A stretch of DNA of 33,205 bases from an uncultured Prevotellaceae bacterium (GTDB taxonomy: Bacteria > Bacteroidota > Bacteroidia > Bacteroidales > Bacteroidaceae). Where the stretch lies: NCBI GenBank assembly GCA_902800495.1, contig CADCET010000033.1:1-33205 (forward strand), written 5' to 3'. The position numbers and the translations under genes are program-made. A model generated the notes under the pieces. That model searched no databases. It worked only from the letters and a program-made list of their open reading frames with translations, and had not been told where the DNA came from. Shown here piece by piece: positions 542-32,327 of the stretch (positions are counted from its first letter, which is position 1; each line of letters starts with the position of its first letter).

Positions 542-928
542 ACACCTCTTACACCTGACACTTAACTGACTGAATGACAGTATACTTCTGTCATGGTGTA
601 AGTCGCACCAGTAGTCGCACCAATGGTCACACCACCTCACGGCCTCTCAGAAAAATTTCGCGGCGTGAAATTTTTACGAGAGGCCGTGACGTTTTTCTGA
701 GAGGCCGTGAAACATTTACGAGCGGCCGATATTTTTTTACGAGCGGCCGGGATATTTTCACGAGCGGCTTGTACGTTTTTGGCTTTGGGCGTGAAACATT
801 GGCGGAAGGGGTTGGTGCGACTATAGGTGCGGGTATTGGTGCGGGTATTGGTGCGACCACTGGTGCTACCTGCTTGCAAGAAAAGCGTGTTGATATTCAG
901 TTAGTTAAGTGCCAGGTGTAAGAGGTGT
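542..928. mobile_element. MITE-like element with 32-bp terminal inverted repeats
   Basis: Positions 542-573 and 897-928 are inverted copies of each other over 32 bp with two mismatches; the outer end reads ACACCTCTTACACCT. Inside the left end, 12-bp units related to GTCGCACCAGTA repeat about three times (about 603-635). Inside the right end, the reverse orientation (GGTGCGGGTATT type) repeats about five times (about 812-871). The core (about 640-800) is a 21-bp tandem array. No transposase is encoded. No target-site duplication is obvious, because the flanks are AT-rich TATATA. The element resembles a non-autonomous, MITE-like unit; I do not recognise a named family. Confidence 0.75.
640..800. 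repeat. 21-bp tandem array closed by an inverted unit
   Basis: Read on the minus strand, the unit is close to CGGCCGCTCGTAAAAATTTCA minus one or two changes and occurs about five times. At the low-coordinate end the last unit is followed by an inverted copy (641-661 against 663-685), which would form a strong hairpin. Because the unit is 21 bp, both strands have open frames with a seven-residue period (RPLVKIS on minus, FTSGRDI on plus). This probably explains the overlapping frames here, and I do not call a gene. Confidence 0.75.
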
Positions 929-1079
929 GGGTATATGATGATTTAAGTGGCATTGTGGCTCTTATCTGCACCACGCGAGGGCTGGCGGGAGGAAAAAATG
1001 AGCTTCCGGAAATAGTTTTAGCCAGATGAAACAATATCCTTTGTGATTCTTCGTTATATGAGAAACAAAAAGTAATTGT
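929..1079. other. Spacer without a recognised gene
   Basis: Between the MITE-like element and the first yraN-like gene there is a short plus-strand open stretch of 33 codons ending at a TGA near 1029. It has no start codon of its own and no family I recognise. No TAnnTTTG promoter was found in front of the gene at 1080; the closest string is TATCCTTTG, with one extra base between the TA and the TTTG. Confidence 0.4.
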
Positions 1080-1433
1080 ATGGCAGCGCATAATGAACTG
1101 GGAATCTGGGGCGAACAATGCGCAGAAGATTATCTCAGGCGTAAAGGATATGTGATCTTGGAACGGGACTGGAAGTCTGGTCATCGCGACTTGGATATCA
1201 TTGCTCTTGATGGTTCTGTGTTGGTCTTTGCAGAAGTCAAGACACGGCGCAACCGGATGTTTACTGATCCTGAAACGGCAGTAGACTACAGGAAAATCCG
1301 GAATCTGAAGATGGCTGCCAACCATTATGTCAAATACCGCCGTTTTGATGGCGATTTCCGCTTTGATATTGTTTCAGTTATTGGGCAAAATGGCGAGCTT
1401 GAAGAAATCGAACATATAGAAGATGCATTTTGA
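1080..1433 (+). CDS. YraN family (UPF0102) endonuclease-like protein, copy 1
   Basis: The 117-residue product has the length and pattern of the YraN/UPF0102 family: an N-terminal helix with LGIWGEQCAEDYLRRKGY, then WKSGHRDLDIIALDG and FAEVKTRRN. RDLDIIA plus EVKTR (residues 36-42 and 52-56) are the PD-(D/E)XK-type acidic and Lys residues of a Holliday-junction-resolvase-like fold. The cellular role of the family is not firmly known; DNA processing is inferred from the fold. A second copy, 117 residues and 92 identical by my count, lies at 6824-7177. Genomes normally have one yraN, so this is a duplication, and it is old enough to have diverged. The start ATG gives the conserved MAAHNELG shared with copy 2. 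Confidence 0.88.
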   Translation: MAAHNELGIWGEQCAEDYLRRKGYVILERDWKSGHRDLDIIALDGSVLVFAEVKTRRNRMFTDPETAVDYRKIRNLKMAANHYVKYRRFDGDFRFDIVSVIGQNGELEEIEHIEDAF

Positions 1434-1954
1434 TTTGCTTTTTCTTTGCCGTTAGATTTGATTTTATAAAAAAATGCCATTGTACCAGTGGTTCCTGCAT
1501 ACGACCGCAAACCGCTAGTACCGTTAATTCGAAGGTGCCTTGCAGTTGTTTCTTTATTAGCTATAGCATAATTTGTTCCTGTTACTTGTGTCGTACCAAT
1601 AATCAAGTCTGTATTAGTTCCTGTGCTTGTAGCCATACTAAAGGTATTAGATGTTGGAACTTGTAAGTAATACGTCGTAATTCCAATGGTTGTTTGTGCC
1701 GTGAAAGAATCTCCGTCATTTGCTTTTTTTAATGTGTATTTTAATGGCGTTTGTGCTGAGGGTAAAGCGCATAGTCCCCAAGAAAAAGTTCCCGAATAAT
1801 GGAAACCTGTCCCATCAACACCAAGAACATATTCTGCGGATTCGTCAATATTGGCAATTGATGTCAGTTGCTCATACGTGTCGCCCCACGCCACATTTCC
1901 TACCATTAGGGCACATAGCAGGAGTAATGATTTAATAAGTAATGGTTTTTTCAT
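1325..1954 (-). CDS. Truncated secreted protein with one endonuclease-associated beta-rich domain
   Basis: The frame encodes 209 residues, but only about the first 165 look like real protein. A signal peptide (KSLLLLCALMVGNVAWG, cleavage near residue 24) is followed by one domain running from YEQLTSIANIDESAEYVLG to GTMAFFYKI. Its layout (LTSIANID, then a ligand-like YYLQVPTS, TARHLRINGTSG, ending AFFYKI) resembles the domain at residues about 1068-1225 of the large protein encoded at 2216-6607, so the two are probably the same family. After about position 1462 the frame runs antisense into sequence homologous to the 3' flank of yraN copy 2 and then into yraN copy 1 itself. The C-terminal 40 residues are therefore probably not native. 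The original protein was presumably longer and was cut by the duplication that placed yraN here. Confidence 0.55.
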   Translation of the reverse strand: MKKPLLIKSLLLLCALMVGNVAWGDTYEQLTSIANIDESAEYVLGVDGTGFHYSGTFSWGLCALPSAQTPLKYTLKKANDGDSFTAQTTIGITTYYLQVPTSNTFSMATSTGTNTDLIIGTTQVTGTNYAIANKETTARHLRINGTSGLRSYAGTTGTMAFFYKIKSNGKEKANQNASSICSISSSSPFCPITETISKRKSPSKRRYLT

Positions 1955-2000
1955 ATTGATAATTGTTTATGTTAATATACGATTATTTGCGGTTTGTCTG

Positions 2001-2030
2001 CAAAGTTAAGAAAAAGATAGGAAACTCAAA
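2001..2030 (-). promoter_or_regulatory. Promoter for the minus-strand secreted protein gene
   Basis: On the minus strand, TAACTTTG (2001-2008) fits the Bacteroidota -7 box TAnnTTTG. A TTTG lies at 2027-2030 with an 18-nt gap. The start codon is about 45 nt downstream. The call rests on motif match only. Confidence 0.5.
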
Positions 2031-2154
2031 TACAAATAAACAAAGATTAAACACCGTAATAGCTGCTGTGACTATTCAGCGATTACCTACCGTCTGGTAA
2101 TCAGGAAAGCCGCTTGTCTCGTTTGTGCTACAATCGAAAGTTTTTGGGAAATAA

Positions 2155-2186
2155 TTTGGTTGTTCTGTAGAAATAGATTAAATTTG
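2155..2186 (+). promoter_or_regulatory. Promoter of the protease-nuclease gene
   Basis: TTTG at 2155-2158 and TAAATTTG at 2179-2186 are separated by 20 nt, the expected Bacteroidota sigma-ABfr arrangement. Transcription would start near 2193, leaving a leader of about 23 nt to the ATG at 2216, or 44 nt to the ATG at 2237. Confidence 0.65.
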
Positions 2187-2215
2187 CAAACTGAATAACG
2201 ATATAAATTGACGAT

Positions 2216-5200
2216 ATGAAAAACATCGAAGTTTTTATGAAAGTCAGACAGCGCAGCTTGATGCCTGTGACGCTGCTGATGCTGGCAGTAGCAACCTTTG
2301 CTGTGCCCGCCAAACCAGGTCTGAAACGACTGCTAACCCTTGCCGACGGCACTACCGTCAGCGCGACGCTCGTCGGCGACGAGCACGGACACTTCTGGAA
2401 GGGTGTCGACGGGAAAAGCTACCAGATGGTGGCTGGTACTGACGTCTATCAGGAGGTGGACGGTGAGAAGATTGTGCAGAAGTCGCGGCAACGCCGTACC
2501 CAGGCCAACAACCGCCGCACGAAGCGGCTGGCTCCGCGCCGAGTAGGCGAGGTAGGAGGTATCACGGGTCAAAAGAAAGGCCTCATCATCCTAGTAAACT
2601 TCAAGGATATGGCGTTCAAGGATGCCAACAATAACGCTCTCTACCAGAAAATAGCCAACGGGGAGAACTACTCTGAAGGCAAATTCAAAGGCTCAATGCG
2701 TGACTACTTCCTGGCGCAGAGCGAGGGGAAGTTCGAACTGGACTTCGACGTCGTAGGCCCTGTAACTGTCAGCGAGAACTACTCGTACTACGGTAAGAAC
2801 GACAGTCAGGGAAACGATATGTATCCTGGACAGATGGTGATCGAGGCTGTCAATGCCGCTGACGCTGAGGTGAACTTTGCCGACTACGACTGGGACGGCG
2901 ACCACGTGGTGGATCAGGTCTATGTGATCTATGCCGGCAAAGGCGAGGCTGACGGCGGCGCTGCCAACACCATCTGGCCGCATGAATACGACCTGACTTC
3001 GGCAAATTATTATGGCGACGGTAGCGGTGCGCAGACACTCGACGGTGTGAAGATCGATACCTACGCCTGCGGTCCCGAGCTGAACGGTGAAACGGGCGAT
3101 ATCGCTGGTATCGGCACGATGTGCCATGAGTTCAGCCACTGCCTGGGCTATCCCGATTTCTACGATACCGACTACAGCGGCGGACAGGGTATGTTTGTGT
3201 GGGACTTGATGGACAGTGGGTCGTATAATGACGACGGCTACCGTCCGGCTGGCTATACCAGCTATGAGCGCTGGGTGGCAGGATGGAAGGAACCCATAGA
3301 GCTGGATGCTACGCAGAACATCAGCAATATGAAGGCCCTGCAGGATGAGGGCTGCAACACCTATATTATATATAATAAAGGTAACAACAACGAGTACTAC
3401 TTGTTAGAGAACCGTCAGAAGACGAAGTGGGATGCCGAACTGCCAGGTGCGGGATTGCTCATCCTGCATGTAGACTATGACGCAACGGCATGGGCGAACA
3501 ATGCTCCTAACGATGACCCCAGCCACCAGCGTATGACGTGGATTCCTGCTGACAACAAGTATCAGTACGAGACCTATAACGGAAATAAGTATTATACTGA
3601 GGCAGGTGCAGCCAACGATCCCTTCCCCTACGGCTCGGTCAACGCCTTCGGCAAGAGCACTACGCCTTCGGCAAAGTTCTATAATAAGAATTCGGACGGC
3701 ACCTACTACCTTGACTCCCGCATTGAGAACATCACGCAGAATAACGATGGCACCGTCTCGTTCCGATTCGTAGGCGCCAGCAATGTGGCTACGCCGACGT
3801 TCTCGCCCAAGGGCGGACGTTATGCTGAGGCACAGACGGTGACCATCAGCTGTGCTACCGCGGGTGCCACCATCTACTACACCACTGACGGCACTACGCC
3901 GACCACGCAGTCGAGCGTCTATAGTTCGGCGCTAACCATCAGCGAGACAACTACCCTGCAGGCCCTGGCTGTAAAGGACGAGGAGGAGAGTGCCATTGCC
4001 GCAGCGACGTATAGGATTGGCGCAAGTGCCAGCAATCCTGACACCAAGACGTTCAAGCTGGTCGCGTCGACCAGCGACCTTGAGCCTGATATGCGCTACA
4101 TCATTGCCTGCGGAAGCAAGAAAACGGCAGCGGGATCCCTGAGCAGCACGTATCTGAGTAAGGAAGGCGTGACGATTAGCAATGATGTCGTAACCATCAC
4201 TGACGACGTGGCTGTCTTCGTGCTTGAAGAGACCAGCGACGGCTGGACGTTACAGAACGAGAGTACGAACGAATACTTGCAATGTAATGGCGAGAAGAAA
4301 GTGTCTTACAGCGACAAGGCATATAGCTGGACACTAAGTGACGGAACGACGACAGGTGTCATAATGGATGCTGGAGACTACGGTACGTTGCAGTACAATA
4401 GCAGCAGCCCCCGCTTCACTATCTATACGAGCAAACAAACGGTTGCCAACCTGTATATGGAATACAGCGACGGCAGCACGACACCTACGGATCCTACAGA
4501 TCCAACTGACCCTACCGACCCAACAGATCCTACAGATCCAACGGAGCCGACTGCCCCCACCTCTGTAACCGACTACTACAAGAATGCCAACGGCAAGAAG
4601 GGTGCTCAGCTGAAGACGGCATTGTGCAGCATTATCTATAACCGTACGGAGAAGAGCTATGATTATCTTTGGACGGCCTACAAGACGACCGACGTGCGTA
4701 GCGACGGTAAGATCTGGGATATGTATTCAAATGTAACAAACTATGTACCAGGCGGTTCTGACGAAGGCGGCACCTACTCAAAAGAAGGTGATTGCTATAA
4801 CCGCGAACACTCGTTCCCACAGAGCTGGTTTGGCGAGAGTGCACCGATGAAGAGCGACTTGTTCCACGTCTATCCCACCGACGGATATGTCAACAACAGA
4901 CGTTCAAACTTTCCATTCGGTGAGACGTCGGGTGATACCTACAAATCAGCCAACGGCTTCAGCAAAGTGGGCTCTTGCACCTATCCAGGCTATTCGGGTA
5001 CGGTCTTCGAACCAAACGATGAGTACAAGGGCGACTTCGCGCGTACCTATTTTTATATGGTAACCTGCTACGAGGAGAAAATCCCCGATTGGTATTCTAA
5101 AAATAGCGGATCACGCTCTACCCTTGACGGCAATAAATATCCTGGTCTGCAGCCCTGGCAGCTGGAGATGCTGATGAAGTGGGCGAAGAACGACCCCGTC

Positions 5201-6607
5201 AGCGAGAAGGAAACAAATCGTAACAACGCCGTCTATGCTATCCAGAAAAACCGTAACCCCTTCATCGACTATCCAGGACTGGAGGAGTACATCTGGGGTA
5301 GCATGACCTCGACGGCTTTCAGCTACGACAACTACGTGGAGCCGGAACAGACAACTGATCCAACTGATCCAACCGACCCAACTGATCCGACCGATCCAAC
5401 GAATCCTGAACCTGCTGTTACAGGCTCATACGCTTTGGTAACTGACGCCACAACGCTGGCTGCTGGCGACAAGATTCTTATCGCCTACGTCGACGGAGAC
5501 ACAAAATATGTGCTTAGCACGACGCAGCAAACCAACAACCGTAAAGCCACCAATGACGTGACGCTCAACAACGATGGTACACTTACGCCTGGCGACGAGG
5601 CACAGATTATCACGCTGGAGAAGGATGGCAGCAACTATCTCTTCAAGGTAGGCGACGATGGCTATCTCTATGCCGCCAGCAGTTCGGCAAATCACTTAAA
5701 GACTGAAAAGAAAAACACCGCTGGTGACAATGCCAAAGCAAGCATCAGCATCAGCGATGGCGATGCCACCATTGTGTTCCAAGGAACGAATACGCGCAAC
5801 AATCTGCGCTACAATTCGAACAATAACAGTCCCATCTTCTCGTGCTACGCTTCGTCTTCGACAGTTCTTACGCTGCCGCAGATTTATCGCGAAGTGTCCG
5901 CATCGTCCATTACCCTGAGCGAAAACGGTACCACTAATTCGAGTGTCATCACAACAAACAACAATCAGACGACCAACGTTACACTTGGTGGCCGCACGCT
6001 CAAGAAGAATGGCGAGTGGAACACTATCTGCCTGCCGTTTAGCGTGGCGCTTGAGGGGTCTGCCCTTGAGGGAGCTACGGCGAAGACGCTGGCTGATGCC
6101 ACGATGACGGGTACCCACGTGATACTGACCTTTGGCGAGCCTGTGACCACACTTCAGGCAGGTGTGCCTTATATCATCAAGTGGGCAAGCGCTGACGATA
6201 TCGTAAGTCCGACGTTCAATGACGTCACTCTGGTTAGCAGCTCTGCGGCTGACAGAACAGTCACAAAGGCTAACGGTAACGTGAAGTTCATTGGCTACTA
6301 CGACGCCTTTAACATTAATGCCAATGACGATGCCATCTACTATATGACCACCGGTAACAGGCTGGTACATACAGGCATTGAACGTACGCTGCCCTCTTTC
6401 CGCGCTTACTTCCAGTTCACGGCAACTGCTGCCTCACGCGACTTAATACTTGACTTCGGAGATGACGCAACGGGCGTTGGCGCTTCGCTAATGAATAGTG
6501 AAAAGAGTATAGGGAATAGTGACATCTACGACCTGCAGGGTCGCAAGGTAGTGAGTCCGACGAAGGGCATATACGTTAGGAATGGAGTTAAAGTGGTAGT
6601 AAAATAG
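2216..6607 (+). CDS. Secreted M6-type metalloprotease fused to endonuclease I
   Basis: This is a 1463-residue multidomain exported protein. A signal peptide ends near AVPA; a second Met at 2237 (residue 8) gives a more usual signal peptide and may be the true start. Residues about 110-520 are an M6 (immune-inhibitor-A type) metalloprotease with the zinc motif HEFSHCLGYPD at 304-314. Residues about 524-600 are a chitobiase-like C-terminal domain (ATPTFSPKGG...IYYTTDGTTPT). A beta-rich domain follows at about 610-750. A (DPT)n linker at about 757-782 leads into endonuclease I (EndA/NucM family, about 785-1035) with the signature NREHSFPQSW at 862-871, then DLFHVYPTD and NFPFGE. A second DPT linker at about 1046-1065 leads to another beta-rich domain. 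The protein ends in IYDLQGRKV...KGIYVRNGVKVVVK. Both active-site motifs are intact. It should degrade extracellular protein and DNA. A promoter lies at 2155-2186, and a 62-aa gene follows 9 nt after the stop. Confidence 0.9.
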   Translation: MKNIEVFMKVRQRSLMPVTLLMLAVATFAVPAKPGLKRLLTLADGTTVSATLVGDEHGHFWKGVDGKSYQMVAGTDVYQEVDGEKIVQKSRQRRTQANNRRTKRLAPRRVGEVGGITGQKKGLIILVNFKDMAFKDANNNALYQKIANGENYSEGKFKGSMRDYFLAQSEGKFELDFDVVGPVTVSENYSYYGKNDSQGNDMYPGQMVIEAVNAADAEVNFADYDWDGDHVVDQVYVIYAGKGEADGGAANTIWPHEYDLTSANYYGDGSGAQTLDGVKIDTYACGPELNGETGDIAGIGTMCHEFSHCLGYPDFYDTDYSGGQGMFVWDLMDSGSYNDDGYRPAGYTSYERWVAGWKEPIELDATQNISNMKALQDEGCNTYIIYNKGNNNEYYLLENRQKTKWDAELPGAGLLILHVDYDATAWANNAPNDDPSHQRMTWIPADNKYQYETYNGNKYYTEAGAANDPFPYGSVNAFGKSTTPSAKFYNKNSDGTYYLDSRIENITQNNDGTVSFRFVGASNVATPTFSPKGGRYAEAQTVTISCATAGATIYYTTDGTTPTTQSSVYSSALTISETTTLQALAVKDEEESAIAAATYRIGASASNPDTKTFKLVASTSDLEPDMRYIIACGSKKTAAGSLSSTYLSKEGVTISNDVVTITDDVAVFVLEETSDGWTLQNESTNEYLQCNGEKKVSYSDKAYSWTLSDGTTTGVIMDAGDYGTLQYNSSSPRFTIYTSKQTVANLYMEYSDGSTTPTDPTDPTDPTDPTDPTDPTEPTAPTSVTDYYKNANGKKGAQLKTALCSIIYNRTEKSYDYLWTAYKTTDVRSDGKIWDMYSNVTNYVPGGSDEGGTYSKEGDCYNREHSFPQSWFGESAPMKSDLFHVYPTDGYVNNRRSNFPFGETSGDTYKSANGFSKVGSCTYPGYSGTVFEPNDEYKGDFARTYFYMVTCYEEKIPDWYSKNSGSRSTLDGNKYPGLQPWQLEMLMKWAKNDPVSEKETNRNNAVYAIQKNRNPFIDYPGLEEYIWGSMTSTAFSYDNYVEPEQTTDPTDPTDPTDPTDPTNPEPAVTGSYALVTDATTLAAGDKILIAYVDGDTKYVLSTTQQTNNRKATNDVTLNNDGTLTPGDEAQIITLEKDGSNYLFKVGDDGYLYAASSSANHLKTEKKNTAGDNAKASISISDGDATIVFQGTNTRNNLRYNSNNNSPIFSCYASSSTVLTLPQIYREVSASSITLSENGTTNSSVITTNNNQTTNVTLGGRTLKKNGEWNTICLPFSVALEGSALEGATAKTLADATMTGTHVILTFGEPVTTLQAGVPYIIKWASADDIVSPTFNDVTLVSSSAADRTVTKANGNVKFIGYYDAFNINANDDAIYYMTTGNRLVHTGIERTLPSFRAYFQFTATAASRDLILDFGDDATGVGASLMNSEKSIGNSDIYDLQGRKVVSPTKGIYVRNGVKVVVK
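4484..4560 (+). repeat. DPT-coding 9-bp repeat, linker 1
   Basis: Roughly seven units coding Asp-Pro-Thr form the linker between the protease half and the nuclease half. Codons vary (GATCCTACA, GACCCTACC, GATCCAACG), so the repeat is kept at protein level as well as DNA level. Confidence 0.85.
5351..5408 (+). repeat. DPT-coding 9-bp repeat, linker 2
   Basis: A second run of about five to six Asp-Pro-Thr units follows the endonuclease domain. The two linkers share stretches such as GATCCAACTGA, so the nuclease module sits between two near-identical repeats and could be gained or lost by recombination. Confidence 0.85.
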
Positions 6608-6616
6608 GAAGTTAAG

Positions 6617-6805
6617 ATGAAAAAGGAATATATAGAACCTCAGATAGAGGTATTGACGATGACAACTCTGCAGATGCTGGCGTTCAGTGGGAATGACAGC
6701 GGTGAAGACGACATCATCATTGACCCGGTGCCCGACGTCAATAGCGGAATAAATAATTCCTGGATACTCTCGGGTGACCCGATGAACTTCTTTACGAACC
6801 AGTAA
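6617..6805 (+). CDS. Small MKKxYxxPxxxV protein of unknown function
   Basis: The product is 62 residues, starting MKKEYIEPQIEVLTMTTLQM and continuing LAFSGNDSGEDDIIIDP. Small Bacteroidales proteins that begin MKK-x-Y-x-x-P-x-x-x-V, carry an LLA.S-like stretch near residue 20 and have an acidic, poorly structured remainder are common but unassigned. The ATG is 9 nt after the stop of the protease-nuclease gene, so they almost surely share a transcript. A similar 51-residue protein at 30811-30966 occupies the same place behind another tail-bearing gene. There is no signal peptide or membrane segment, although the short hydrophobic TLQMLAF could be a recognition element. Confidence 0.65.
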   Translation: MKKEYIEPQIEVLTMTTLQMLAFSGNDSGEDDIIIDPVPDVNSGINNSWILSGDPMNFFTNQ

Positions 6806-6823
6806 AAAGAGATCAACCCAATT

Positions 6824-7177
6824 ATGGCAGCGCATAATGAACTGGGAACCTGGGGTGAACAGTGTGCGGTTGAATATCTTAGGCGCAAAGGCTATGTTAT
6901 CCTGGAGCGAGATTGGAAGTCCGGTCATCGCGACTTGGATATCATAGCTTTTGACGGCGCCACAATGGTGTTCGTCGAAGTGAAAACGCGTAGGAATCGT
7001 ATGTTTGCCGACCCGGAGATGGCTGTTGACTATCGGAAAATCAGTAATCTGAAGAAGGCTGCCAATCACTATATCAATTACCGGCATTATGATGGCGAGA
7101 TTCGCTTCGACATTCTGACAGTCATAGGCAGCGATGACCATCTTGAGGAACTGGAACATATAGAAGATGCATTTTAA
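6824..7177 (+). CDS. YraN family (UPF0102) endonuclease-like protein, copy 2
   Basis: The product is 117 residues with the family core GHRDLDIIAFDG and FVEVKTRRN (acidic and Lys residues of a PD-(D/E)XK-like site at residues 37, 39, 52 and 54). It is 92/117 identical to copy 1 at 1080-1433, same length and no gaps. Similarity continues about 25-30 nt past the stop (TTTTCTTTG then CGTTAGA), where this copy's downstream sequence contains the -33 part of the promoter for the esterase gene. Upstream sequences differ. It starts 18 nt after the small protein gene, so it could belong to the same transcript. Which copy is ancestral cannot be told from the window alone. Confidence 0.88.
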   Translation: MAAHNELGTWGEQCAVEYLRRKGYVILERDWKSGHRDLDIIAFDGATMVFVEVKTRRNRMFADPEMAVDYRKISNLKKAANHYINYRHYDGEIRFDILTVIGSDDHLEELEHIEDAF

Positions 7178-7188
7178 TTTGTTTTTTC

Positions 7189-7219
7189 TTTGTCGTTAGA
7201 CTTTTTCTTCGTACTTTTG
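7189..7219 (+). promoter_or_regulatory. Promoter of the acetylesterase-rhamnosidase operon
   Basis: TTTG at 7189-7192 and TACTTTTG at 7212-7219 are spaced by 19 nt, matching the Bacteroidota consensus. The ATG at 7249 is about 30 nt downstream. The -33 part lies in the stretch that is also present behind yraN copy 1, where the -7 box is missing. Confidence 0.7.
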
Positions 7220-7248
7220 CACAAGCAAATACTTAAGATACTAAAACA

Positions 7249-8481: not shown

Positions 8482-8488
8482 AATCTGT

Positions 8489-11092: not shown

Positions 11093-11112
11093 CTTGCTGA
11101 AAAGGGCATTTA

Positions 11113-11175
11113 GGTTTGCTTACGGTAAAGTCCAGGTTTACCGTAAGCAAACTTGGACTTTACCGTAAGCAAACC
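11113..11175. repeat. Triple palindromic repeat (GTTTGCTTACGGTAAAG family), possible terminator
   Basis: The 22-bp segment at 11113-11134 is the exact reverse complement of 11154-11175. The spacer between them holds a third inverted copy of the core (11135-11153). The core GGTTTGCTTACGGTAAAGT recurs exactly at 32073-32091. The right arm is followed by TTTTT, so in RNA it could act as a terminator for the esterase-rhamnosidase operon, whose stop is 20 nt upstream. Two alternative hairpins are possible, because copy 1 can pair with copy 2 or copy 3. Confidence 0.75.
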
Positions 11176-11238
11176 TTTTTCTGCGAGCAGTATTAGGGCT
11201 ACGTTCTATTACCGAGATCCCATGCGGATATAACCATG

Positions 11239-21160: not shown

Positions 21161-21168
21161 TACTTTTG
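21161..21168 (+). promoter_or_regulatory. -7 promoter box of the exonuclease III gene
   Basis: TACTTTTG fits TAnnTTTG and is 21 nt before the ATG at 21190. The only possible -33 match is a TTGTGGG about 22 nt upstream. Confidence 0.5.
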
Positions 21169-21189
21169 TAGCATCAAAAACCTGAACTT

Positions 21190-21939
21190 ATGAAATTTGT
21201 CTCTTGGAATGTTAATGGCCTGCGTGCTTGCGAGGGCAAGGGCTTTAGTGATGTCTTCCGCAGTTTGGATGCTGACTTCTTCTGTCTGCAGGAGACGAAG
21301 ATGCAGGCCGGACAGCTCGACTTGCAGTTCGACGGCTACCAGTCCTACTGGAACTATGCCGACAAGAAAGGTTATTCCGGCACCGCCATCTTCACCCGCC
21401 ACCAGCCGCTCCAGGTCACATACGGCATTGGCGTCGACCTGCACGACCACGAGGGTAGGGTGGTGACGCTTGAGATGGAGCAGTTCTTCCTCGTCTGCTG
21501 CTACACGCCCAACGCCCAGGACGGCCTGAAGCGTTTAGATTACCGTCTGTCGTGGGAGGAGGCTTTCCGTCGCTATCTGAAACAGCTCGATGCCGTGAAG
21601 CCCGTCATCCTCTGTGGCGATCTGAATGTGGCCCACGAGGAGATTGACCTGAAGAATCCCAAGAGCAACCGCCGCAATGCCGGCTTCTCCGACGAGGAGC
21701 GCCAAGCCTTCACCGACCTCCTGTCCTGCGGTTTCACCGATACCTTCCGTACCCTTTATCCCGACCGCGTGGAGTACTCGTGGTGGTCTTACCGTTTCCA
21801 GGCTCGTCAGAAGAATGCCGGCTGGCGCATCGACTATTTCGTCGTCTCCGATCGTCTGATGCCGCAGGTGGCCGACTCCCTTATCCATACCACCATTACG
21901 GGCAGCGACCATTGTCCTGTAGAGCTACTGCTGAAATAG
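21190..21939 (+). CDS. xth: Exodeoxyribonuclease III (XthA family AP endonuclease)
   Basis: The product is 249 residues, full length. The metal and catalytic motifs of the exonuclease-endonuclease-phosphatase fold are all present: SWNVNGLRA (Asn7), LQETKM (Glu34), YSGTAIFTR, CCYTPNAQ, GDLNVAHEEIDL, RIDYF, and GSDHCPVEL. It cuts the backbone at abasic sites and removes 3' blocks in base-excision repair. It diverges from the kinase-like gene. A GH31 gene follows 40 nt after its stop without a visible promoter. Confidence 0.94.
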   Translation: MKFVSWNVNGLRACEGKGFSDVFRSLDADFFCLQETKMQAGQLDLQFDGYQSYWNYADKKGYSGTAIFTRHQPLQVTYGIGVDLHDHEGRVVTLEMEQFFLVCCYTPNAQDGLKRLDYRLSWEEAFRRYLKQLDAVKPVILCGDLNVAHEEIDLKNPKSNRRNAGFSDEERQAFTDLLSCGFTDTFRTLYPDRVEYSWWSYRFQARQKNAGWRIDYFVVSDRLMPQVADSLIHTTITGSDHCPVELLLK

Positions 21940-21979
21940 AAACGCTGAATTTTTAACCTATAACAATAACTAAAGAAAG

Positions 21980-24412: not shown

Positions 24413-24424
24413 TAGACAGACCGT

Positions 24425-27166: not shown

Positions 27167-27204
27167 GCGGTTTGCTGAACCAGCACGCCATTTCGCTGAA
27201 TTAT

Positions 27205-27236
27205 TTTGCAAGACTCAGACGATAGTACTAACTTTG
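27205..27236 (+). promoter_or_regulatory. Promoter of the VTC-DUF4956 operon
   Basis: TTTG at 27205-27208 and TAACTTTG at 27229-27236 have a 20-nt gap. The chosen ATG is at 27260. Confidence 0.68.
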
Positions 27237-27259
27237 CACCGTCAACGAAACCAGAAGCA

Positions 27260-28036
27260 ATGCAAGAAATACTCAACCAGTTTGACCCCATCACCCTCGA
27301 CGAGATGAGCGGCATACGCCTGATGAACCGCACGGACACGAAGTTCGTCACCACCAGGCCGATGCTCGAACGCCTTCTGGCGATGGCACGCCATGACTAC
27401 TTCGCACAGGCGATTGGCGGCCAGCGCATTGCCGCCTACTTCACTGTCTACTTCGATACGCCGGATTGTAATATGTACACCGTCCACGAGACGGGACACA
27501 CCAACCGGCAGAAGCTCCGCGTGCGCTCCTATGTCGACTCGCACCTGAACTTCCTTGAAGTGAAAACCAAGAATAATCGCGGAAGGACGAAGAAAAAGCG
27601 GGTGGCGCTCGACGACTTCAACCCTGACGACTCAGCACGCTTCGACCTGCAAGCCGATTGTTACGGAGAATTCCTCCATCAGTATCTGCGCTACGACCCG
27701 CAGACACTCTGCCGACAGTTGGAGAACCGCTTCGACCGCATCACACTGGTCAACAAGGCCAAGACCGAGCGGCTGACCATCGACACCAACCTGCGCTTCT
27801 GTAATGTGGCTACGGGCAGGCGGCGTGCTATGGACGACATCGTCATCATCGAGCTGAAACGTGACGGCCTGCAGCCGTCGCCCATTCTCCACATGCTCCG
27901 CGACCTTCGCATCAAACCCCACGGCTTCTCGAAGTACGTCATCGGCTCTGCGCTCACCAACCCTAACCTGCACTGCAACCGCATGAAGCCCAAGGTCAAC
28001 GACATTGAGCGACTGCTGAATCATCAAACTCTGTAA
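27260..28036 (+). CDS. VTC domain (polyphosphate-polymerase-like) protein
   Basis: The product is 258 residues from the ATG at 27260. The frame is open from 27206, but that part contains the promoter. Motifs of the VTC4-type tunnel fold are seen in order: RTDTKFVTT, AYFTVYFDTPD, RQKLRVRSYVDS, FLEVKTKNNRGRTKKKRV, KAKTERLTIDTNL, and IVIIELKRDG. In yeast Vtc4 such basic residues bind nucleotide and polyphosphate. Bacterial members are thought to make or handle polyphosphate, but this one is unproven. It precedes a DUF4956 membrane protein, a well-known pairing. Confidence 0.85.
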   Translation: MQEILNQFDPITLDEMSGIRLMNRTDTKFVTTRPMLERLLAMARHDYFAQAIGGQRIAAYFTVYFDTPDCNMYTVHETGHTNRQKLRVRSYVDSHLNFLEVKTKNNRGRTKKKRVALDDFNPDDSARFDLQADCYGEFLHQYLRYDPQTLCRQLENRFDRITLVNKAKTERLTIDTNLRFCNVATGRRRAMDDIVIIELKRDGLQPSPILHMLRDLRIKPHGFSKYVIGSALTNPNLHCNRMKPKVNDIERLLNHQTL

Positions 28037-28080
28037 ATCGTAAATAAATAGTAAATCGTAAATAAATAGTAAATCGTAAA
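28033..28080. repeat. 18-bp tandem repeat between the VTC and DUF4956 genes
   Basis: GTAAATCGTAAATAAATA occurs twice exactly (28033-28050, 28051-28068) and then partly (28069-28080). Two shorter ATCGTAAAT copies follow. The first copy includes the stop codon of the VTC gene. It is probably slippage of an AT-rich spacer. Confidence 0.85.
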
Positions 28081-28096
28081 TTTAAAAATCGTAAAT

Positions 28097-28753
28097 ATGC
28101 TTGACTTTCTGACTTTATCCCCGAGCTTTGCCCAGATGCTGGTGCGACTGCTCATCAGTTTAGTAGTAACGTGGTTCATCGTCTTCCGACTTTATTACAA
28201 GAAGAGTAAGAACCGCGAGTTCTGTTTCACCTTCATGCTCATCTCCATTGCCATCTTCTTCATCGTCTTCTTCATGGTCTTCGTCCTTGAGGATATGAAG
28301 GGCAAGACGTCGATGGGTATTGGCATCGGACTCTTCGGCATCTTCTCCATCATGCGCTACCGTACCGACGCCATGCCTGTGCGCGAGATGACCTACCTCT
28401 TTATCATCATCGCCCTTGCCCTGGTCAATGCCATCGCCGAGGGGGTGCCTATGCTGGAGCTGATTCTCACCAACGTTATTGTCGTCGTTGCCGTCTGGTC
28501 CTTTGAGCTCAGTCTGAAGACCAAACCCACGAAGTACGTCCAGTACGACCGCATGGAACTGATAGTCCCCGAGCGGCGCGATGAGCTGAAGGCCGACCTT
28601 GAGAAGCGGCTTGGCGTGAAAGTCATCAAGCTCGAAGTAGGCTCCGTCGACTTCATCCGCGACATGGCCATGATTCGCATCGTCTACGAAGGACTCGAAA
28701 CCCCTGCCAACAAGAAGTTGAAACTCAAGAACAGCGAACTCACCGACTTCTGA
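28097..28753 (+). CDS. DUF4956 membrane protein
   Basis: The product is 218 residues. Four membrane segments are visible: about 14-33 (LVRLLISLVVTWFIVFRLYY), about 43-66 (FTFMLISIAIFFIVFFMVFV), about 71-115 (GIGIGLFGIFSIMRYRT, then LFIIIALALVNAIAEG) and about 120-137 (LELILTNVIVVVAVWSF). A soluble C-terminal domain follows (about 150-218). FGIFSIMRYRTDAMPVREMTY is the conserved block of DUF4956. It is 60 nt from the VTC gene. The pair may form a membrane-bound polyphosphate polymerase or channel, by analogy with yeast VTC. Confidence 0.85.
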   Translation: MLDFLTLSPSFAQMLVRLLISLVVTWFIVFRLYYKKSKNREFCFTFMLISIAIFFIVFFMVFVLEDMKGKTSMGIGIGLFGIFSIMRYRTDAMPVREMTYLFIIIALALVNAIAEGVPMLELILTNVIVVVAVWSFELSLKTKPTKYVQYDRMELIVPERRDELKADLEKRLGVKVIKLEVGSVDFIRDMAMIRIVYEGLETPANKKLKLKNSELTDF

Positions 28754-28776
28754 CGTGGTGACGCTTACGGAAATAA

Positions 28777-28806
28777 GAATCCCCGAACCGCTTGCCGGTT
28801 CGGGGA
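28777..28806. repeat. 30-nt hairpin repeat, copy 1, possible terminator
   Basis: CCCCGAACCG then CTTGC then CGGTTCGGGG forms a 10-bp stem with a 5-nt loop. The 30 nt are identical to 30669-30698. It follows the DUF4956 stop by 24 nt and could act as a terminator, though no T run follows. The next 55 nt begin GCATCC and end GGATGC. Confidence 0.8.
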
Positions 28807-29059
28807 AGCATCCACCCTGCTTGCCGCTGATGACGCTCTTGGCCGTCAAGCTTCAGGATGCAGAATTACTAAGAAAATGAAAATCATAATAAAGATAGCG
28901 CATCCTGCACGTTTTATGCCCATTGGCAAAGTGGAATTGAAAGAAGAAGGAACCGTAACAAGATGAACTAATTATGGTAAAATATCGCGATACTGGGCGA
29001 AAGTTGGTGTTTTTATATGCATTTTCGCCCGCTATCGATGTTTTTTTGAAAAAAAGTTG
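28807..29059. other. Spacer before the ATPase gene
   Basis: No gene is visible. An inverted repeat GGGCGAAA (28995-29002) against TTTCGCCC (29023-29030), with TATCG just outside each arm, may be an operator or hairpin in front of the ATPase gene. The rest is AT-rich. Confidence 0.45.
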
Positions 29060-29067
29060 TAACTTTG
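29060..29067 (+). promoter_or_regulatory. -7 promoter box of the ATPase gene
   Basis: TAACTTTG fits TAnnTTTG and lies 21 nt before the ATG at 29089. AGAGGAA precedes the ATG and may serve as a weak ribosome binding site. No -33 TTTG at the right distance. Confidence 0.5.
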
Positions 29068-29088
29068 CGGCAAAATTAGAAGAGGAAT

Positions 29089-30516
29089 ATGCAAAACTCA
29101 ATTATTGGCCGCAAAGAAGAAATCGCTCTGCTGGAGAAGTATATGACTTCCAACCACTCAGAGTTCATAGCCGTTTATGGACGCAGACGTGTGGGCAAAA
29201 CATTCCTCATACGTCAGTATTTTCAAAATCAATTTGCCTTTGACATGACTGGCATTATCGAAGGAAAGAAGGCGGAGCAATTGACTGCTTTCAATCATGC
29301 GATGAAACAATACGGTTACAAAGGCAGGAAACCTGTTACATGGTTGGACGCGTTCTTCGCCTTACGTGATTTGTTGGAGCAAAAGTTGGAACAAGGGAAG
29401 CCATGCGTGATATTTATAGATGAGATGCCCTGTCTTGACACTCCTAAATCAGGTTTCGTTCATGCGCTGGGGCATTTTTGGAATAGTTGGGCTGCATGGC
29501 AGGTAGAAATTAAACTGATAGTCTGTGGTTCTGCAACCTCATGGATGGTGCGAAATATCATTGACAATCATGGTGGACTGCACGACCGCGTGACTCACGA
29601 AATAGCATTGAAACCCTTTACGCTCAGTGAGACGGAAGAGTATTTTCAGTCCTTTGGCTTTCCCTGGTCACGTTTAAGTGTGCTGCATACTTACATGGCA
29701 GTGGGTGGCGTACCTTACTATCTCAGTCTGTTCAACCCCGATGAAAGTCCGGCACAAGGAATTGACCGCCTGTTTTTCTCGGAAAATGGAGAACTGCAGA
29801 AAGAATACAGACGGCTGTTTGCTTCTCTTTTCAGGAATCCAGGACCTTATCTTGCTGTCATCAAACTGTTGGCAGCAAAGCCATCGGGAATGACTCGCGA
29901 AGAGATACGTGAACAGTTGGGCGGTAGTAACAACGGGCATCTGGGCGACCTGCTGACAGACCTTGTCTATTGTGATTTCCTGCGCCAGTATAAGGTAAGA
30001 GAGAAAAAGGTGAAGGCCAATTCGTCCATCTACAAGTTGGTGGACTTTTATACATTATTCTACCACACATTCATCGGCAAGGCTTCCATGAACACAAGCT
30101 ATTGGACACGCCTGCAAGGCACGCCCACAGTGAATACATGGCTCGGACTGGCGTATGAGCGTGTCTGTATGGCTCATGTATCGCAGATAAAGAGAGCCTT
30201 GGGTATTGGTAGTGTCGTGACGGAAGCTTATTCATGGCGAAGCAAAGACTCAGAACATCCTGCTCAAATCGACTTGTTGATAGAACGTGCAGACAAGATG
30301 ATTAATCTTTGCGAGATAAAGTACAGCGAAACTGAATACAATCTTTCGCAGGAAGAGTATTTGAACATTGGGCGCAGGGTTGAAAGTTTCAGAGTTGCCA
30401 TACAGACACATTATGGTATCGTCCCTACGCTCATCACCACCTTTGGTCTGTCAAGGGGCATGTATGCAGACTCCATCCATGCCTCGGTGGTTTTGGATGA
30501 CCTGTTTACCAACTGA
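29089..30516 (+). CDS. AAA-type ATPase with DUF234 nuclease-like C-terminus
   Basis: The product is 475 residues. The N-terminal ATPase_2 domain begins IIGRKEEIALLEKY and has Walker A GRRRVGKT (31-38), Walker B CVIFIDEM (106-113) and a sensor-like IVCGSATSWMV. A winged-helix segment (about 265-330, PSGMTREEIREQLGGSNNG) follows, then a DUF234 domain with AQIDLLIERADKMINLCEIK, a PD-(D/E)XK-like core (D...EIK). The family is common in archaea and Bacteroidales; its role is unknown, with defence or mobile-element links suggested by distribution. The gene is intact, stands alone and sits between two identical hairpins (28777-28806, 30669-30698). Its AT-richer codon use differs from the neighbouring housekeeping genes, which fits acquisition. 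Confidence 0.85.
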   Translation: MQNSIIGRKEEIALLEKYMTSNHSEFIAVYGRRRVGKTFLIRQYFQNQFAFDMTGIIEGKKAEQLTAFNHAMKQYGYKGRKPVTWLDAFFALRDLLEQKLEQGKPCVIFIDEMPCLDTPKSGFVHALGHFWNSWAAWQVEIKLIVCGSATSWMVRNIIDNHGGLHDRVTHEIALKPFTLSETEEYFQSFGFPWSRLSVLHTYMAVGGVPYYLSLFNPDESPAQGIDRLFFSENGELQKEYRRLFASLFRNPGPYLAVIKLLAAKPSGMTREEIREQLGGSNNGHLGDLLTDLVYCDFLRQYKVREKKVKANSSIYKLVDFYTLFYHTFIGKASMNTSYWTRLQGTPTVNTWLGLAYERVCMAHVSQIKRALGIGSVVTEAYSWRSKDSEHPAQIDLLIERADKMINLCEIKYSETEYNLSQEEYLNIGRRVESFRVAIQTHYGIVPTLITTFGLSRGMYADSIHASVVLDDLFTN

Positions 30517-30668
30517 CACCAAGGAACTGGAGAGGGTTATAGCCAACATAGGCATCAAGCTGAGCGTGGACATGGGCATTGACGAAGTCAAGACGCCAAT
30601 TATTTGGAAGAATCAAAAGAATTGCATGTCTTTGCGGTCGGAAATATTTGCAATTATTCTACCAAAGT
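30517..30668. other. Open stretch after the ATPase gene, no recognised gene
   Basis: After the ATPase stop, the +2-shifted frame stays open to a TGA at 30668-30670 (ELERVIANIGIKLSVDMGID, then TPIIWKNQK). It has no own start in a good position. It may be the 3' end of a lost gene, but I do not recognise it. Confidence 0.3.
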
Positions 30669-30698
30669 GAATCCCCGAACCGCTTGCCGGTTCGGGGA
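30669..30698. repeat. 30-nt hairpin repeat, copy 2
   Basis: Identical over 30 nt to 28777-28806, same orientation, 1.9 kb apart. The stem is CCCCGAACCG with CGGTTCGGGG. Confidence 0.8.
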
Positions 30699-30810
30699 TA
30701 ATCTGGAGTATAAGACTACTGACAGAGGAGCTGTCAGAGTCCTCGACTCAGTGCGATAATCTCATCAACAAACACGCCCATTGATTTCCAAGTGACTTTC
30801 GTTTTCCGAT

Positions 30811-30966
30811 TCATAGTTCAAAAAGATCAAAAATGAAGCGTGATTCAGCATTCTCTGGGTTCTCAGACTCGTTAGAATCTATATCTATAACGATACTGGC
30901 AGCAAGAACCTCTTCCTGTTTTATAGTAACAACATCAACTAATGGACGTAAATAATTCTTTTTCAT
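30811..30966 (-). CDS. Small MKKxYxxPxxxV protein, 51 aa
   Basis: The minus strand reads MKKNYLRPLVDVVTIKQEEV, then LAASIVIDIDSNESENPENA, and ends FIFDLFEL with a TGA at 30811-30813. It matches the 62-residue protein at 6617-6805 in the MKKxYxxPxxxV start, an L-L/M-A-x-S-like stretch near residue 20 and an acidic second half. I start at 30966, where GGAA stands 3-4 nt upstream; an ATG at 30969 is possible. It lies about 12 nt behind the stop of the tail-bearing pseudogene at 30979-31542, as the other does behind the protease-nuclease gene. The frame is intact even though the partner gene has decayed. Confidence 0.62.
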   Translation of the reverse strand: MKKNYLRPLVDVVTIKQEEVLAASIVIDIDSNESENPENAESRFIFDLFEL

Positions 30967-30978
30967 CATTTCCAAACA

Positions 30979-31542
30979 TTACTTAATGATCACTTTTTTA
31001 CCTTTAAGAATATACAATCCCTTCTTTGGCTGAAAAATGCGCTGACCGCTGATGTTGTAGTAGCGTTCAATATCCTCACCGCTATGGCCGATGACTTCAG
31101 ATACGCCTGTAAGTTCGGCGTCAATCAGTATAGCGTCGCGGGTCTGGGCTGTTTCAAGTCGCAGGTAGGCTTTGCCAGCCTTGATGGTGCCAGTAGTGGC
31201 TGCTTGTGTAAGTCACCGTATCCTTCAACATATCCACCATAGCGTAAGTGCTGACGAAATCAAACGTTTCACTATACTGCTCACCCCATTGCTCCAACAG
31301 ATTCTTAGCCTTGAAATTGAAGGCGTGAGTACTGTTGTCGAGAGCAGACAAATCGATACGGAAGGTGTTCTCGCCTGTTGTGCCTTTGCCCGTCACCTTA
31401 TGACTGGTATCCCAGTAGCACTACCCACCGTTCGGCTGGCATAATCGTCGTCTGTCCAATACTCATATTGAGAAATGCTTTGAGCCGTAGCTCCGCATAG
31501 CAGCAATAGGAGTAACGACAGACTTGTTATTACTCTCTTCAT
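30979..31542 (-). pseudogene. Decayed secreted protein with Por-secretion-like tail
   Basis: On the minus strand an ATG at 31542 opens a signal peptide (MKRVITSLSLLLLLCGATAQ) followed by SISQYEYWTDDDYASRTVGS. That frame stops after GIPVIR. A second frame continues VTGKGTTGENTFRIDLSALD, then AFNFKAKNLLEQWGEQYSE, to about 31210. A third frame goes on GTIKAGKAYLRLETAQTRDA and ends ERYYNISGQRIF, then KKGLYILKGKKVIIK with a TAA at 30979-30981. So at least two frameshifts break one gene. 'QYEYWxDxDY' and 'NFxAKN...EQWG' suggest a family of larger secreted Bacteroidales proteins, so internal sequence may also be lost. Confidence 0.75.
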
Positions 31543-31555
31543 AAGCTATACGTCT

Positions 31556-31753
31556 TTATTGCGGAGAAACGGTCAATGTCACGTTCAATTCTTTCTTCTC
31601 ATTGTCCAACTGCAGGTCGCTGCTGGTGACTTTGGGTACTGACGGAACAAGGGTGAATGGAGTGTCGCCACCATCAATGCCAACGACCGTGCCGTCTGTG
31701 CCAAGATAGCCATTAGACTGAAGATATGGCAAAAAAGTAACTCGGCGCAACAA
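31556..31753 (-). pseudogene. C-terminal remnant of a secreted protein
   Basis: The minus frame reads SNGYLGTDGTVVGIDGGDTP, then PKVTSSDLQLDNEKKELNVT and stops at 31556-31558. There is no ATG; the frame begins with a TTG just beside AT-rich sequence before the MITE-like element at 31806. It appears to be the end of a longer gene whose 5' part is gone. The next gene on this strand begins 13 nt after its stop, so they once formed an operon. Confidence 0.5.
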
Positions 31754-32029
31754 AAACCTCTCAGTTAGGGCAGAACATAGTGGTTTTTCGCGTTTCTCCT
31801 CCTTTGTAAAAAGTGCGATTATCCGCTTATCCGCAAACTCTGCTGAGCGTCAGATGTTTAGCGAGAAATTATCCGCCAATTATCCGCCAATTATCCGCCA
31901 ATTTTGCCTCTTTGGACGCTTTTTCCGACCATTTTAGCCTTTGTCCTATACCGTCAGCCCCTTTGTCCTATACCGTCTGAGCCTTTATCTTCGCCCTTTG
32001 TCGCTGAAACGTAACGGCCATTTAGGAAG

Positions 32030-32069
32030 AGTCCGACGGGTGCGGACTTTTGTCCGTGCCCGTCGGACT
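32030..32069. repeat. Strong hairpin in the core of the second MITE-like element
   Basis: AGTCCGACGGGTGCGGAC (32030-32047) pairs with GTCCGTGCCCGTCGGACT (32052-32069) with two mismatches around TTTT. It could fold as DNA cruciform or RNA. Confidence 0.78.
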
Positions 32070-32072
32070 GTT

Positions 32073-32091
32073 GGTTTGCTTACGGTAAAGT
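32073..32091. repeat. Dispersed GTTTGCTTACGGTAAAG repeat
   Basis: GGTTTGCTTACGGTAAAGT is an exact 19-nt match to 11113-11131, where it occurs three times in a palindrome. Confidence 0.8.
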
Positions 32092-32327
32092 TTACCTTTC
32101 ATCCCAACTCTCGTGGCCAGATGCAGCTGCAAGTCATCGTGCTCATACATGGCGGATACTTGGCGGATACATGGCGGATAATTTTGCGCTAACCATCTGA
32201 CGTTCAGTGGAGTTTGCGGATAAGCGGATAATTGCATTTTTTTACGCGGTTAGTCTGAAATCGCTTCCGACAAAAAGCGAGTACTACGTGCAAAAAATAG
32301 CGAAAAAACCCATAAGATGAATGCATC

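What the first reader, a model, noticed from the sequence alone, without database searches (positions are those of the whole stretch)
542..32246. Two MITE-like elements with the same architecture but different sequence
Elements at 542-928 (387 bp) and 31806-32246 (441 bp) each have terminal inverted repeats, then three to five short iterations of 11-12 bp (12 bp in the first, 11 bp in the second) pointing inwards from both ends, then a core of 21-22-bp tandem units with a strong hairpin. The primary sequences are unrelated. Convergent layout suggests one mechanism, for example iterated binding sites for a transposase or a recombinase given in trans. The layout is seen directly; the mechanism is inference.
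Basis: partly seen in the sequence, partly recalled or inferred. Interest (0 to 1): 0.72.

Follow-up and report, generated by a model that had tools for sequence, protein, structure and literature searches.

The report
Related repeats sharing ends with primase-helicase
Two short gene-less repeats in a Prevotella-like genome turn out to be distant members of one family of scattered, mobile-looking elements whose ends share a strict layout, and in a related genome the same kind of ends enclose a gene for a primase-helicase-like protein rather than a transposase.

Summary
The layout is real and far beyond chance, but not convergent. Element 1 belongs to a family with 38 ends in its own genome and many in a few related Prevotellaceae; edges coincide with the inverted repeats. 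Element 2 has one more copy in its genome and one in a relative. Both families share a subterminal motif at the same place, and elements in three other genomes of the genus carry both recognition motifs, so they are homologous. Nearly all ends follow one geometry: two copies of a motif 8-9 bp apart, a gap of 42-43 or 53-54 bp (one helical turn more) holding an IHF-like sequence, then several copies of the same motif every 11-12 bp. No target-site duplication was found. In one genome such ends lie 2,420 bp apart around one long gene, a BT4734-N/VapE primase-helicase-like protein; four of five other relatives of it in held loci lie beside such elements or ends. Best reading: non-autonomous elements mobilised in trans through a nucleoprotein end complex, with this protein the leading candidate. 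Movement, binding and the protein's role are inferred.

The parts
538..931 (+). Element 1, family 1, type AA (two A ends); outermost GGTG on the left and GGG on the right
   Evidence: an orthologous stretch in G051 matches window 645-1459 at 98%, the G051 contig ending inside the element
542..555 (+). Left terminal pair ACACC-TCTT-ACACC, CACC motifs 9 bp apart
559..580 (+). Left subterminal A-type motif (CACTTAAC + imperfect palindrome), IHF-like at 2 of 9 mismatches (counted by hand)
601..634 (+). Left 12-bp iterons
634..800 (.). Core: first unit inverted, then 21-bp units (consensus GCGGCCGTGAAATTTTTACGA); strong hairpin
812..866 (-). Right 12-bp iterons (GGTGCG...), inverted relative to the left set
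890..911 (-). Right subterminal A-type motif
915..928 (-). Right terminal pair
31808..32242 (+). Element 2, type BB; recognition motif TTATCCGC
   Evidence: copies at G000:C12:80194-80648 and G051:C71:15491-15856
31819..31834 (+). Left terminal pair TTATCCGCTTATCCGC, spacing 8
31843..31863 (+). Left subterminal B-type motif CTGAGCGTCAGATGTTTAGCG (weak IHF match here, 3 of 9 mismatches by hand; the ends C12_b and G051_a have 1)
31867..31903 (+). Left 11-bp iterons AATTATCCGCC, 42 bp after the second terminal copy
31936..31986 (+). 22-bp units AGCCTTTGTCCTATACCGTCAG
32027..32072 (.). Core hairpin AGTCCGACGGG...; similar GTCCG/CGGAC stems lie in the cores of L393 and L409 (by eye)
32145..32183 (-). 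Right 11-bp iterons
32187..32207 (-). Right subterminal B-type motif
32216..32231 (-). Right terminal pair

Best explanation
Both window elements are non-autonomous members of one superfamily of intergenic mobile elements in Prevotella. Each end is an assembly site for a nucleoprotein complex: a terminal pair of one short motif, then a subterminal site resembling the consensus of IHF, a DNA-bending protein, then several more copies of the same motif in helical phase. A sequence-specific protein supplied in trans would bind the pair and the iterons, a bending protein of the IHF/HU kind would fold the end so that both lie on the same face, and the two ends would then be paired. Families differ in the motif read (CACC, TTATCCGC, or both) and keep the geometry. 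The leading candidate for the trans factor is the BT4734-N/VapE primase-helicase-like protein, which in one genome is encoded between the same kind of ends. Shown: relatedness, geometry, motif sharing, a gene between the ends. Inferred: binding, pairing, mobility, and the role of the protein. How DNA is cut and joined is unknown.
For: Copies and edges: 17+21 ends in the own genome and 15+17 in G051, none in the other 147 of 149 genomes at up to 2 mismatches; 76 loci distinct by both flanks, 34 if either flank may match. Geometry: pair spacing 9 in 147 of 149 ends, gap 53/54 in 100 of 105 A ends and 42/43 in 35 of 44 B ends, iteron spacing 12 in 346 of at least 384 steps (the printout is capped); element-2 ends 8, 42, 11 in 5 of 6; bridging ends pair 8 in 19 of 20 and gap 43 in 20 of 20. 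IHF consensus at 1 mismatch or less in 93 of 152 subterminal windows, 2 of 269 core windows, 13 of 564 flank windows. Gene: L414, ends 2,420 bp apart, one 697-aa ORF with PF08800 and PF05272; gene-less copies with the same ends in the same genome. Relatives of the gene in 5 other held loci, 4 of them with an end or element close by, by eye; inverted repeats around a B. finegoldii gene. Presence/absence between close relatives: L062 filled, L180 empty.
Against: No target-site duplication: mean longest direct repeat between flanks 2.42, re-paired flanks 2.53, n 19; 0-1 bp in 9 of 9 bridging elements. Only 2 of 17 tested primase-helicase loci have clear inverted repeats around the gene, and in one of these, L436, a direct reading also scores high (67 inverted, 45 direct; its downstream end is partly palindromic). 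No gene-bearing copy of family 1 was found: 0 facing ends 800-7,000 bp apart among 199 neighbouring end pairs. The primase motif I acidic residues are replaced in L414 and L207 (my assignment). The gene was not sought genome-wide in the window's own genome, and none was seen in the stretches held from it. No covariation supports a folded hairpin at the subterminal palindrome: outer pair 60 of 106, shuffled 61. Window element 2 itself matches the IHF consensus poorly. All counts contain related copies. The only clean empty site may be a deletion between GGTG repeats.
Confidence: 0.55

Rival explanations
1. MITEs of a conventional DDE transposon with multi-site, IHF-assisted ends (as in Tn7-like elements), whose autonomous copy is absent from these draft genomes. 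The primase-helicase gene would be a passenger.
For: The layout is like that of type I-F CAST left ends, where an IHF site lies between transposase sites and spacing matters with about 10-bp period (PMC10201428, passages). The own genome is 82% complete in 86 contigs, so a repeated IS could be missing.
Against: No duplication of target; in 447 held loci the only facing ends 800-7,000 bp apart enclose the primase-helicase gene.
Confidence: 0.2
2. Tyrosine-recombinase-type ends: terminal pair as core sites, IHF-like site, iterons as arm sites, as in phage attachment sites.
For: No target duplication; pair, bend site and 11-12-bp repeats in that order (the lambda parallel is recalled).
Against: The terminal and inner motifs are the same, whereas lambda Int reads two different ones (recalled). 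No integrase between ends in the one gene-bearing copy.
Confidence: 0.1
3. Invertible regulatory switches (invertons) controlled in trans.
For: Inverted arms of suitable length; dispersed copies.
Against: Five AA copies match a relative as one unbroken alignment through the element and at least 19 bp of both flanks (L054, L062, L070, L074, L076), so these have the same orientation; I did not screen for broken, inverted pairs. AB elements have unlike ends. The TANNTTTG promoter motif (recalled) is in 19 of 76.
Confidence: 0.04
4. Nucleoid or regulatory repeats that spread by homologous recombination and gene conversion only, with no enzyme of their own; the primase-helicase reads them for replication or autoregulation.
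For: Ends are exchanged between copies (AA and AB types; W and L051 share the left part and differ at the right); no TSD; core arrays also occur without the ends.
Against: Edges coincide at many unrelated sites and some sites differ between close relatives.
Confidence: 0.1
5. Unrelated elements with convergent layout.
For: Different recognition motifs and cores in the two window elements.
Against: Shared subterminal motif and intermediates with both motifs.
Confidence: 0.03

Closest known systems
BrickBuilt and MITE464/PgRS of Porphyromonas gingivalis (PMC4596501; abstract, section 5 and section 7 part 1 read)
   Same: Multi-copy, intergenic (BrickBuilt), inverted ends, internal tandem units of 23 (41) nt; PgRS segments beside the tandem units are themselves repetitive
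   Different: 12-bp TIRs there are most like IS5-family ISPg1/ISPg9; TSDs there are irregular; no pair-bend-iteron geometry is described in what I read; sequences differ
IHF-bearing MITEs: QMITE1 of Coxiella and Correia of Neisseria (PMC5896051 and PMC10969869, passages)
   Same: Short elements with TIRs (QMITE1) and an IHF site
   Different: No terminal pair and iterons read by one motif in the passages seen; QMITE1 there has flanking direct repeats
Type I-F CAST (Tn7-like) left ends (PMC10201428, passages)
   Same: Several protein sites with an IHF site (5'-AATCAGCAAACTTA-3') between them, 10-bp periodic spacing effect
   Different: Those sites belong to a transposase (TnsB) and only the left end has the IHF site; here both ends are alike and no transposase was found
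BT4734-like primases and VirE/VapE AAA+ proteins of mobile elements (PMC5862659, passages)
   Same: Same protein domains; VirE ATPases predicted there to be helicases for replication of mobile elements
   Different: The passages seen describe no single-gene element with such ends

Membership tests
MITE | Short, non-coding, multi-copy, intergenic | tested here: met
   262-723 bp in 76 loci (pairing was limited to 200-800 bp, but one search found no facing family-1 ends 800-7,000 bp apart); 1 of 76 inside one long ORF; longest closed ORF median 73 aa against 50 shuffled, which in-frame 12/21-bp repeats could explain
MITE | Terminal inverted repeats at the edges | tested here: met
MITE | Target-site duplication | tested here: not met
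MITE | A transposase-encoding partner with the same ends | tested here: not met
   The one gene-bearing copy encodes a primase-helicase-like protein; the drafts are incomplete
BrickBuilt/PgRS | IS5-type TIR (GAGACC...) | tested here: not met
   Ends are GGTGACACC... or TTATCCGC... against Table 2 of PMC4596501
Tn7-like/CAST ends | Multiple sites with IHF site in helical phase | tested here: met
   By sequence only
Tn7-like/CAST ends | TnsB-type transposase and 5-bp duplication (recalled) | tested here: not met
   No transposase between ends in held loci; no duplication
Inverton | Both orientations occur | tested here: inconclusive
   Five AA orthologues in the same orientation; no screen for inverted pairs and no reads
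REPIN/RAYT | Partner Y1-type transposase gene | not tested
BT4734-N/VapE element | Gene enclosed by the same ends | tested here: inconclusive
   L414 clear, L436 likely; 15 of 17 loci without clear inverted repeats around the gene

The most novel reading that the evidence does not exclude
An undescribed class of minimal mobile element in Bacteroidales: one gene, a primase-helicase-like protein with a degraded primase site and an intact helicase, between composite ends (motif pair, bend site, iterons). It moves or copies itself without a transposase and without target duplication, for example by initiating local replication at iteron ends. Its recognition motif has changed repeatedly while the geometry stayed fixed, and each change left its own swarm of gene-less copies.
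Probability: 0.3. Interest if true: 0.85.

Novelty: new variant of a known kind. Interest (0 to 1): 0.7.

Why it matters
BT4734/BF3469-family genes occur in several Bacteroidales in the collections searched here, and their purpose is not known to me. Linking them to defined DNA ends gives a testable function. The families also form a natural series in which geometry is kept while the recognition motif changes, which would let one ask how a DNA-binding protein and its sites change together. If movement without a transposase were shown, it would be a new way for small elements to spread.

Tried and rejected
Coding reading: element 1 holds a 115-aa ORF (574-921), which fits 12 and 21 being multiples of three; element 2 uses 11 and 22, and Pfam gave only a sub-threshold glycine-zipper match. 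RNA reading: no Rfam family in 13 sources; no covariation in the outer pair of the subterminal palindrome. TA duplication: TA on both sides in 6 of 12 readable AA copies, while TA is the commonest outside dinucleotide anyway (28 of at least 57; the printout is capped), so not evidence. Solo footprints: ATAGGTGTGGGTAT has exact matches in G000 (L359), RUG200 (the known empty site) and G010; L359 looks like coding sequence by eye and has no element match nearby. L413, the one viral-contig match to a bridging motif, lies inside a long ORF and is taken as chance. Phages and plasmids: no DNA match of window element 1 (both collections), of element 2 (phages only) or of L409 (plasmids only); viral contigs gave 0 for five motif patterns and 0 for the protein. 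Motif hits inside genes that I take, by eye, for integrases are chance (L383, L386, L410, L411). Four further flank comparisons (L063/L290, L174/L283, L187/L268, L239/L266) and L137/L261 gave no clean empty site. A lone family-1 end in L189 is followed by other genes and by another element, with no facing end of its own.

Rows dropped: one search paired only ends 200-800 bp apart, kept only elements with at least one A end and with 25 bp of flank, and cut 127 pairs to 76 by both flanks; one search gives 34 under a stricter rule that also merges conserved tails, so the true number lies between. L207 and L133 may be wrongly paired there. In one search, 3 of 152 ends gave no geometry. One search tested element 2 out of register; one search repeats it in register.
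Full report
What was checked. The two elements were read directly and their repeats measured. Element 1 has 34-nt inverted arms, 12-bp iterations on both sides and a 21-bp core. Element 2 has 93-nt arms, 11-bp iterations, 22-bp units and a hairpin. Random controls are far below the observed values once element 2 is put in register, and both strands fold much better than shuffles. The coordinates are right to within a few bases.

Copies. In the window's own genome (G000, 3.12 Mb, 86 contigs, 82% complete) element 1 gives 173 matches. Its 25-base end, at up to 2 mismatches, occurs 17 times forward and 21 times reverse there, 15 and 17 times in G051, and in none of the other 147 of 149 genomes of genus and order. 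In GTDB contigs a 24-base end is found in 71 stretches, all titled Prevotellaceae or Prevotella; two titles name roe deer reticulum and goat abomasum, the RUG names I take for rumen assemblies (recalled), and the SRR11784280/282 titles name no source. The genus name Prevotella rests on these titles. Element 2 has a second copy in G000 (77%) and one in G051; of 90 genomes only G033 gave anything else, three 27-bp core matches. Its end was found in 2 of 398 genus genomes. GGTGACACCNNNNACACC is multi-copy in 4 of 398 genomes (G000, G051, G163, G429); 29 others hold 31 hits against 18 for the reversed control (summed by hand), and at least one of them, in G022, is an element.

Edges. Aligned copies share the same edges while flanks differ. 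76 loci are distinct by both flanks and 34 by the stricter rule. The family has two kinds of ends. A ends carry TGGCACTTAAC and then an imperfect palindrome; B ends carry CTGATTATCAG and then GTTAGCG or similar. Elements are AA (like element 1) or AB; AB elements have a conserved tail outside the B end, so their outer limit is less clear. Element 2 and the bridging elements are BB. No facing family-1 ends lie 800-7,000 bp apart among 199 neighbouring end pairs in the held loci, so no long family-1 copy was seen.

One empty site. At the L062 site G000 and G051 carry the element and RUG200 (L180) does not: AAACAATAGGTG-TGGGTATAG in the empty genome, with the element between the two halves in the filled ones. 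GGTG is present at both junctions, so the empty form could also be a deletion between short repeats. Other flank comparisons are less clean. RUG200 has an element at the L174 site where G051 has none but also differs around it; L137/L182 are filled in G051 and RUG200 while G000 is about 79% alike and unclear there. G051 stretches matching the flanks of L061 and L075 hold no exact end, and the one matching L053 holds core-like repeats without an exact end.

No target duplication. The longest direct repeat between the flanks is 2.42 on average, and 2.53 for re-paired flanks. Bridging elements show 0-1 bp in 9 of 9.

The two families are related. Between the terminal pair and the iterons, element-2 ends and family-1 B ends share a segment of the form TGANTATCAGNNGGTTAGCG: mean score 9.31 against 5.48 for shuffles with sd 0.26; best 18 against a mean best of 9.83 and highest 15 in 100 shuffles. 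A search for this form in 398 genus genomes gave 53 places in 28 genomes, against 11 for the reversed control (both summed by hand). Some are hits inside genes. In G429, G446 and G201 places are ends of elements with TTATCCGCTTATCCTACACC at the edge and both TTATCCGC and TTATCCTACACC inside. Family-1 B ends of one type (ACACCTGATACTGATTATCAG) differ by one base from the L409 end (ACACCCGATACTGATTATCAG). So the families are steps of one series.

Geometry. In family 1 the two terminal CACC copies are 9 bp apart in 147 of 149 ends. The distance to the first iteron is 53 or 54 bp in 100 of 105 A ends and 42 or 43 bp in 35 of 44 B ends, about one helical turn apart. Iterons are 12 bp apart in 346 of at least 384 steps. 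Element-2 ends read 8, 42, 11 (5 of 6; the sixth has changed iterons). Bridging ends read 8 in 19 of 20, 43 in 20 of 20, then mostly 11. Within 1.47 Mb of held sequence, itself chosen for these elements, inverted sets of such iterations had only CACC/GGTG-type (24 loci) or TTATCCG-type (22 loci) units, sorted by motif alone. Copies are related, so these are not independent events; the agreement across families is the stronger point.

A bend site. The subterminal segment resembles the IHF consensus WATCAANNNNTTR (consensus seen in PMC5896051). At one mismatch or less it is matched in 93 of 152 subterminal windows, 2 of 269 core windows and 13 of 564 flank windows; shuffles give means of 2.56 (A) and 3.01 (B) mismatches against 1.28 and 1.12. 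A and B ends mostly carry it in opposite orientation (86 of 103 and 39 of 40). The IHF site shown to act between transposase sites in a CAST element is AATCAGCAAACTTA (PMC10201428), with the same G after ATCA as here. In the window's element 2 itself the match is poor. Whether Prevotella IHF/HU proteins read this site is not known from any call. Genes for HU-family proteins lie near the BT4734/BF3469 gene in 3 of 6 annotated Bacteroidales stretches (L435, L438, L439).

A gene between the ends. In G446 (L414) the left and right ends face each other 2,420 bp apart, and one 697-aa ORF (1856-3949) fills most of the space, its stop codon touching the right iterons; other long frames there overlap it. 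It is the only such pair 800-7,000 bp apart in the held loci. It matches PF08800 (BT4734-like N-terminal, E 6.8e-20) and PF05272 (VapE-like, E 9e-23), both above the Pfam cut-offs; PHROGs gives helicases and primases, PADLOC PrimPol, and NCBIfam only sub-threshold primase models. PMC5862659 lists BT4734-like proteins as a primase family and predicts VirE ATPases to be helicases (passages). The gene-less copies of the same genome share these ends (mean 73% and 80%, at most 85% and 93%, over 86 nt ungapped). In the held loci, relatives of this protein were found in five other places. In L424 (76% identity) an end follows the stop. In L207 (51%) and L179 (45%) a family-1 element lies roughly 80 and 200 bp upstream. 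In L326 (38%, partial) a compact element with GGTGACACC edges lies about 200 bp upstream. In L143 (31%, partial) only a GTCCG hairpin like that of element 2 lies upstream (distances by eye). These loci were chosen because they hold an element or a motif, so presence is biased; the short distance is the informative part. Beyond Prevotella, a B. finegoldii gene (L436) has CTGACAATA repeats on both sides: inverted score 67, direct 45, while mismatched pairs reach 34 apart from L414 with L424 (104), which share their ends; 95% of mismatched pairs reach at most 23, and L442 (25) is just above that. The other 14 of 17 loci do not exceed it. In an alignment of 8 proteins the helicase motifs are largely kept and the canonical primase acidic pair is seen only in L439 (motif assignment is mine).

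How it may work. Inferred: the protein binds the pair and the iterons, a bending protein folds the end, two ends pair, and the element is moved or copied. The chemistry is unknown. A transposon of ordinary kind with a missing enzyme remains possible.

Literature. Searches for BrickBuilt, MITEs with Prevotella and tandem repeats, BT4734, VirE N-terminal, dispersed palindromic repeats in Prevotella, and primase with terminal inverted repeats and iterons showed no description of these elements in their listings; the library holds only openly licensed papers. PMC4596501 was read in its abstract, section 5 and the first part of section 7; the other cited papers in passages only.

Noticed in passing
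window 11113-11175 and 32073-32091; L028-L050: A unit GGTTTGCTTACGGTAAAG occurs in short arrays, about 22 bp apart and in mixed orientation, at many mostly intergenic-looking places of the own genome, also inside element 2.
   Followed up: partly
L077-L089 (own genome): The 21-bp core unit of element 1 also forms arrays without the inverted ends, some beside GC-rich alternating palindromes and 7-bp CACTTCT/TTACCTC repeats.
   Followed up: partly
window 1080-1433 and 6824-7177: Two paralogous genes in the window; the first matches PF02021/UPF0102, the second is similar by eye.
   Followed up: no
window 32693-32872: A 90-bp tandem duplication (98%) inside an ORF (32615-33037) that weakly resembles IS66 accessory TnpA (below cut-off), about 370 bp from element 2 and near the contig end.
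   Followed up: partly
L391, L392, L396, L397: Compact stem-loops in other genomes of the genus with the same subterminal motif in the loop region; they may be still smaller relatives.
   Followed up: partly
L390, L399, L388/L412: Other iterated layouts near the motif with different units (GGTGCTACT; GGCAAATTACC; TTTTGGTTGCACC), possibly more families.
   Followed up: no
L129: A solo A end about 500 bp from a complete element, cutting a small gene pair that looks like a YafQ-type toxin-antitoxin module (by eye).
   Followed up: no
L441, L444: Iterated motifs directly after the stop of BT4734-like genes in human-gut phage-labelled contigs (ATCGACACC; TATCTGCAAC).
   Followed up: no
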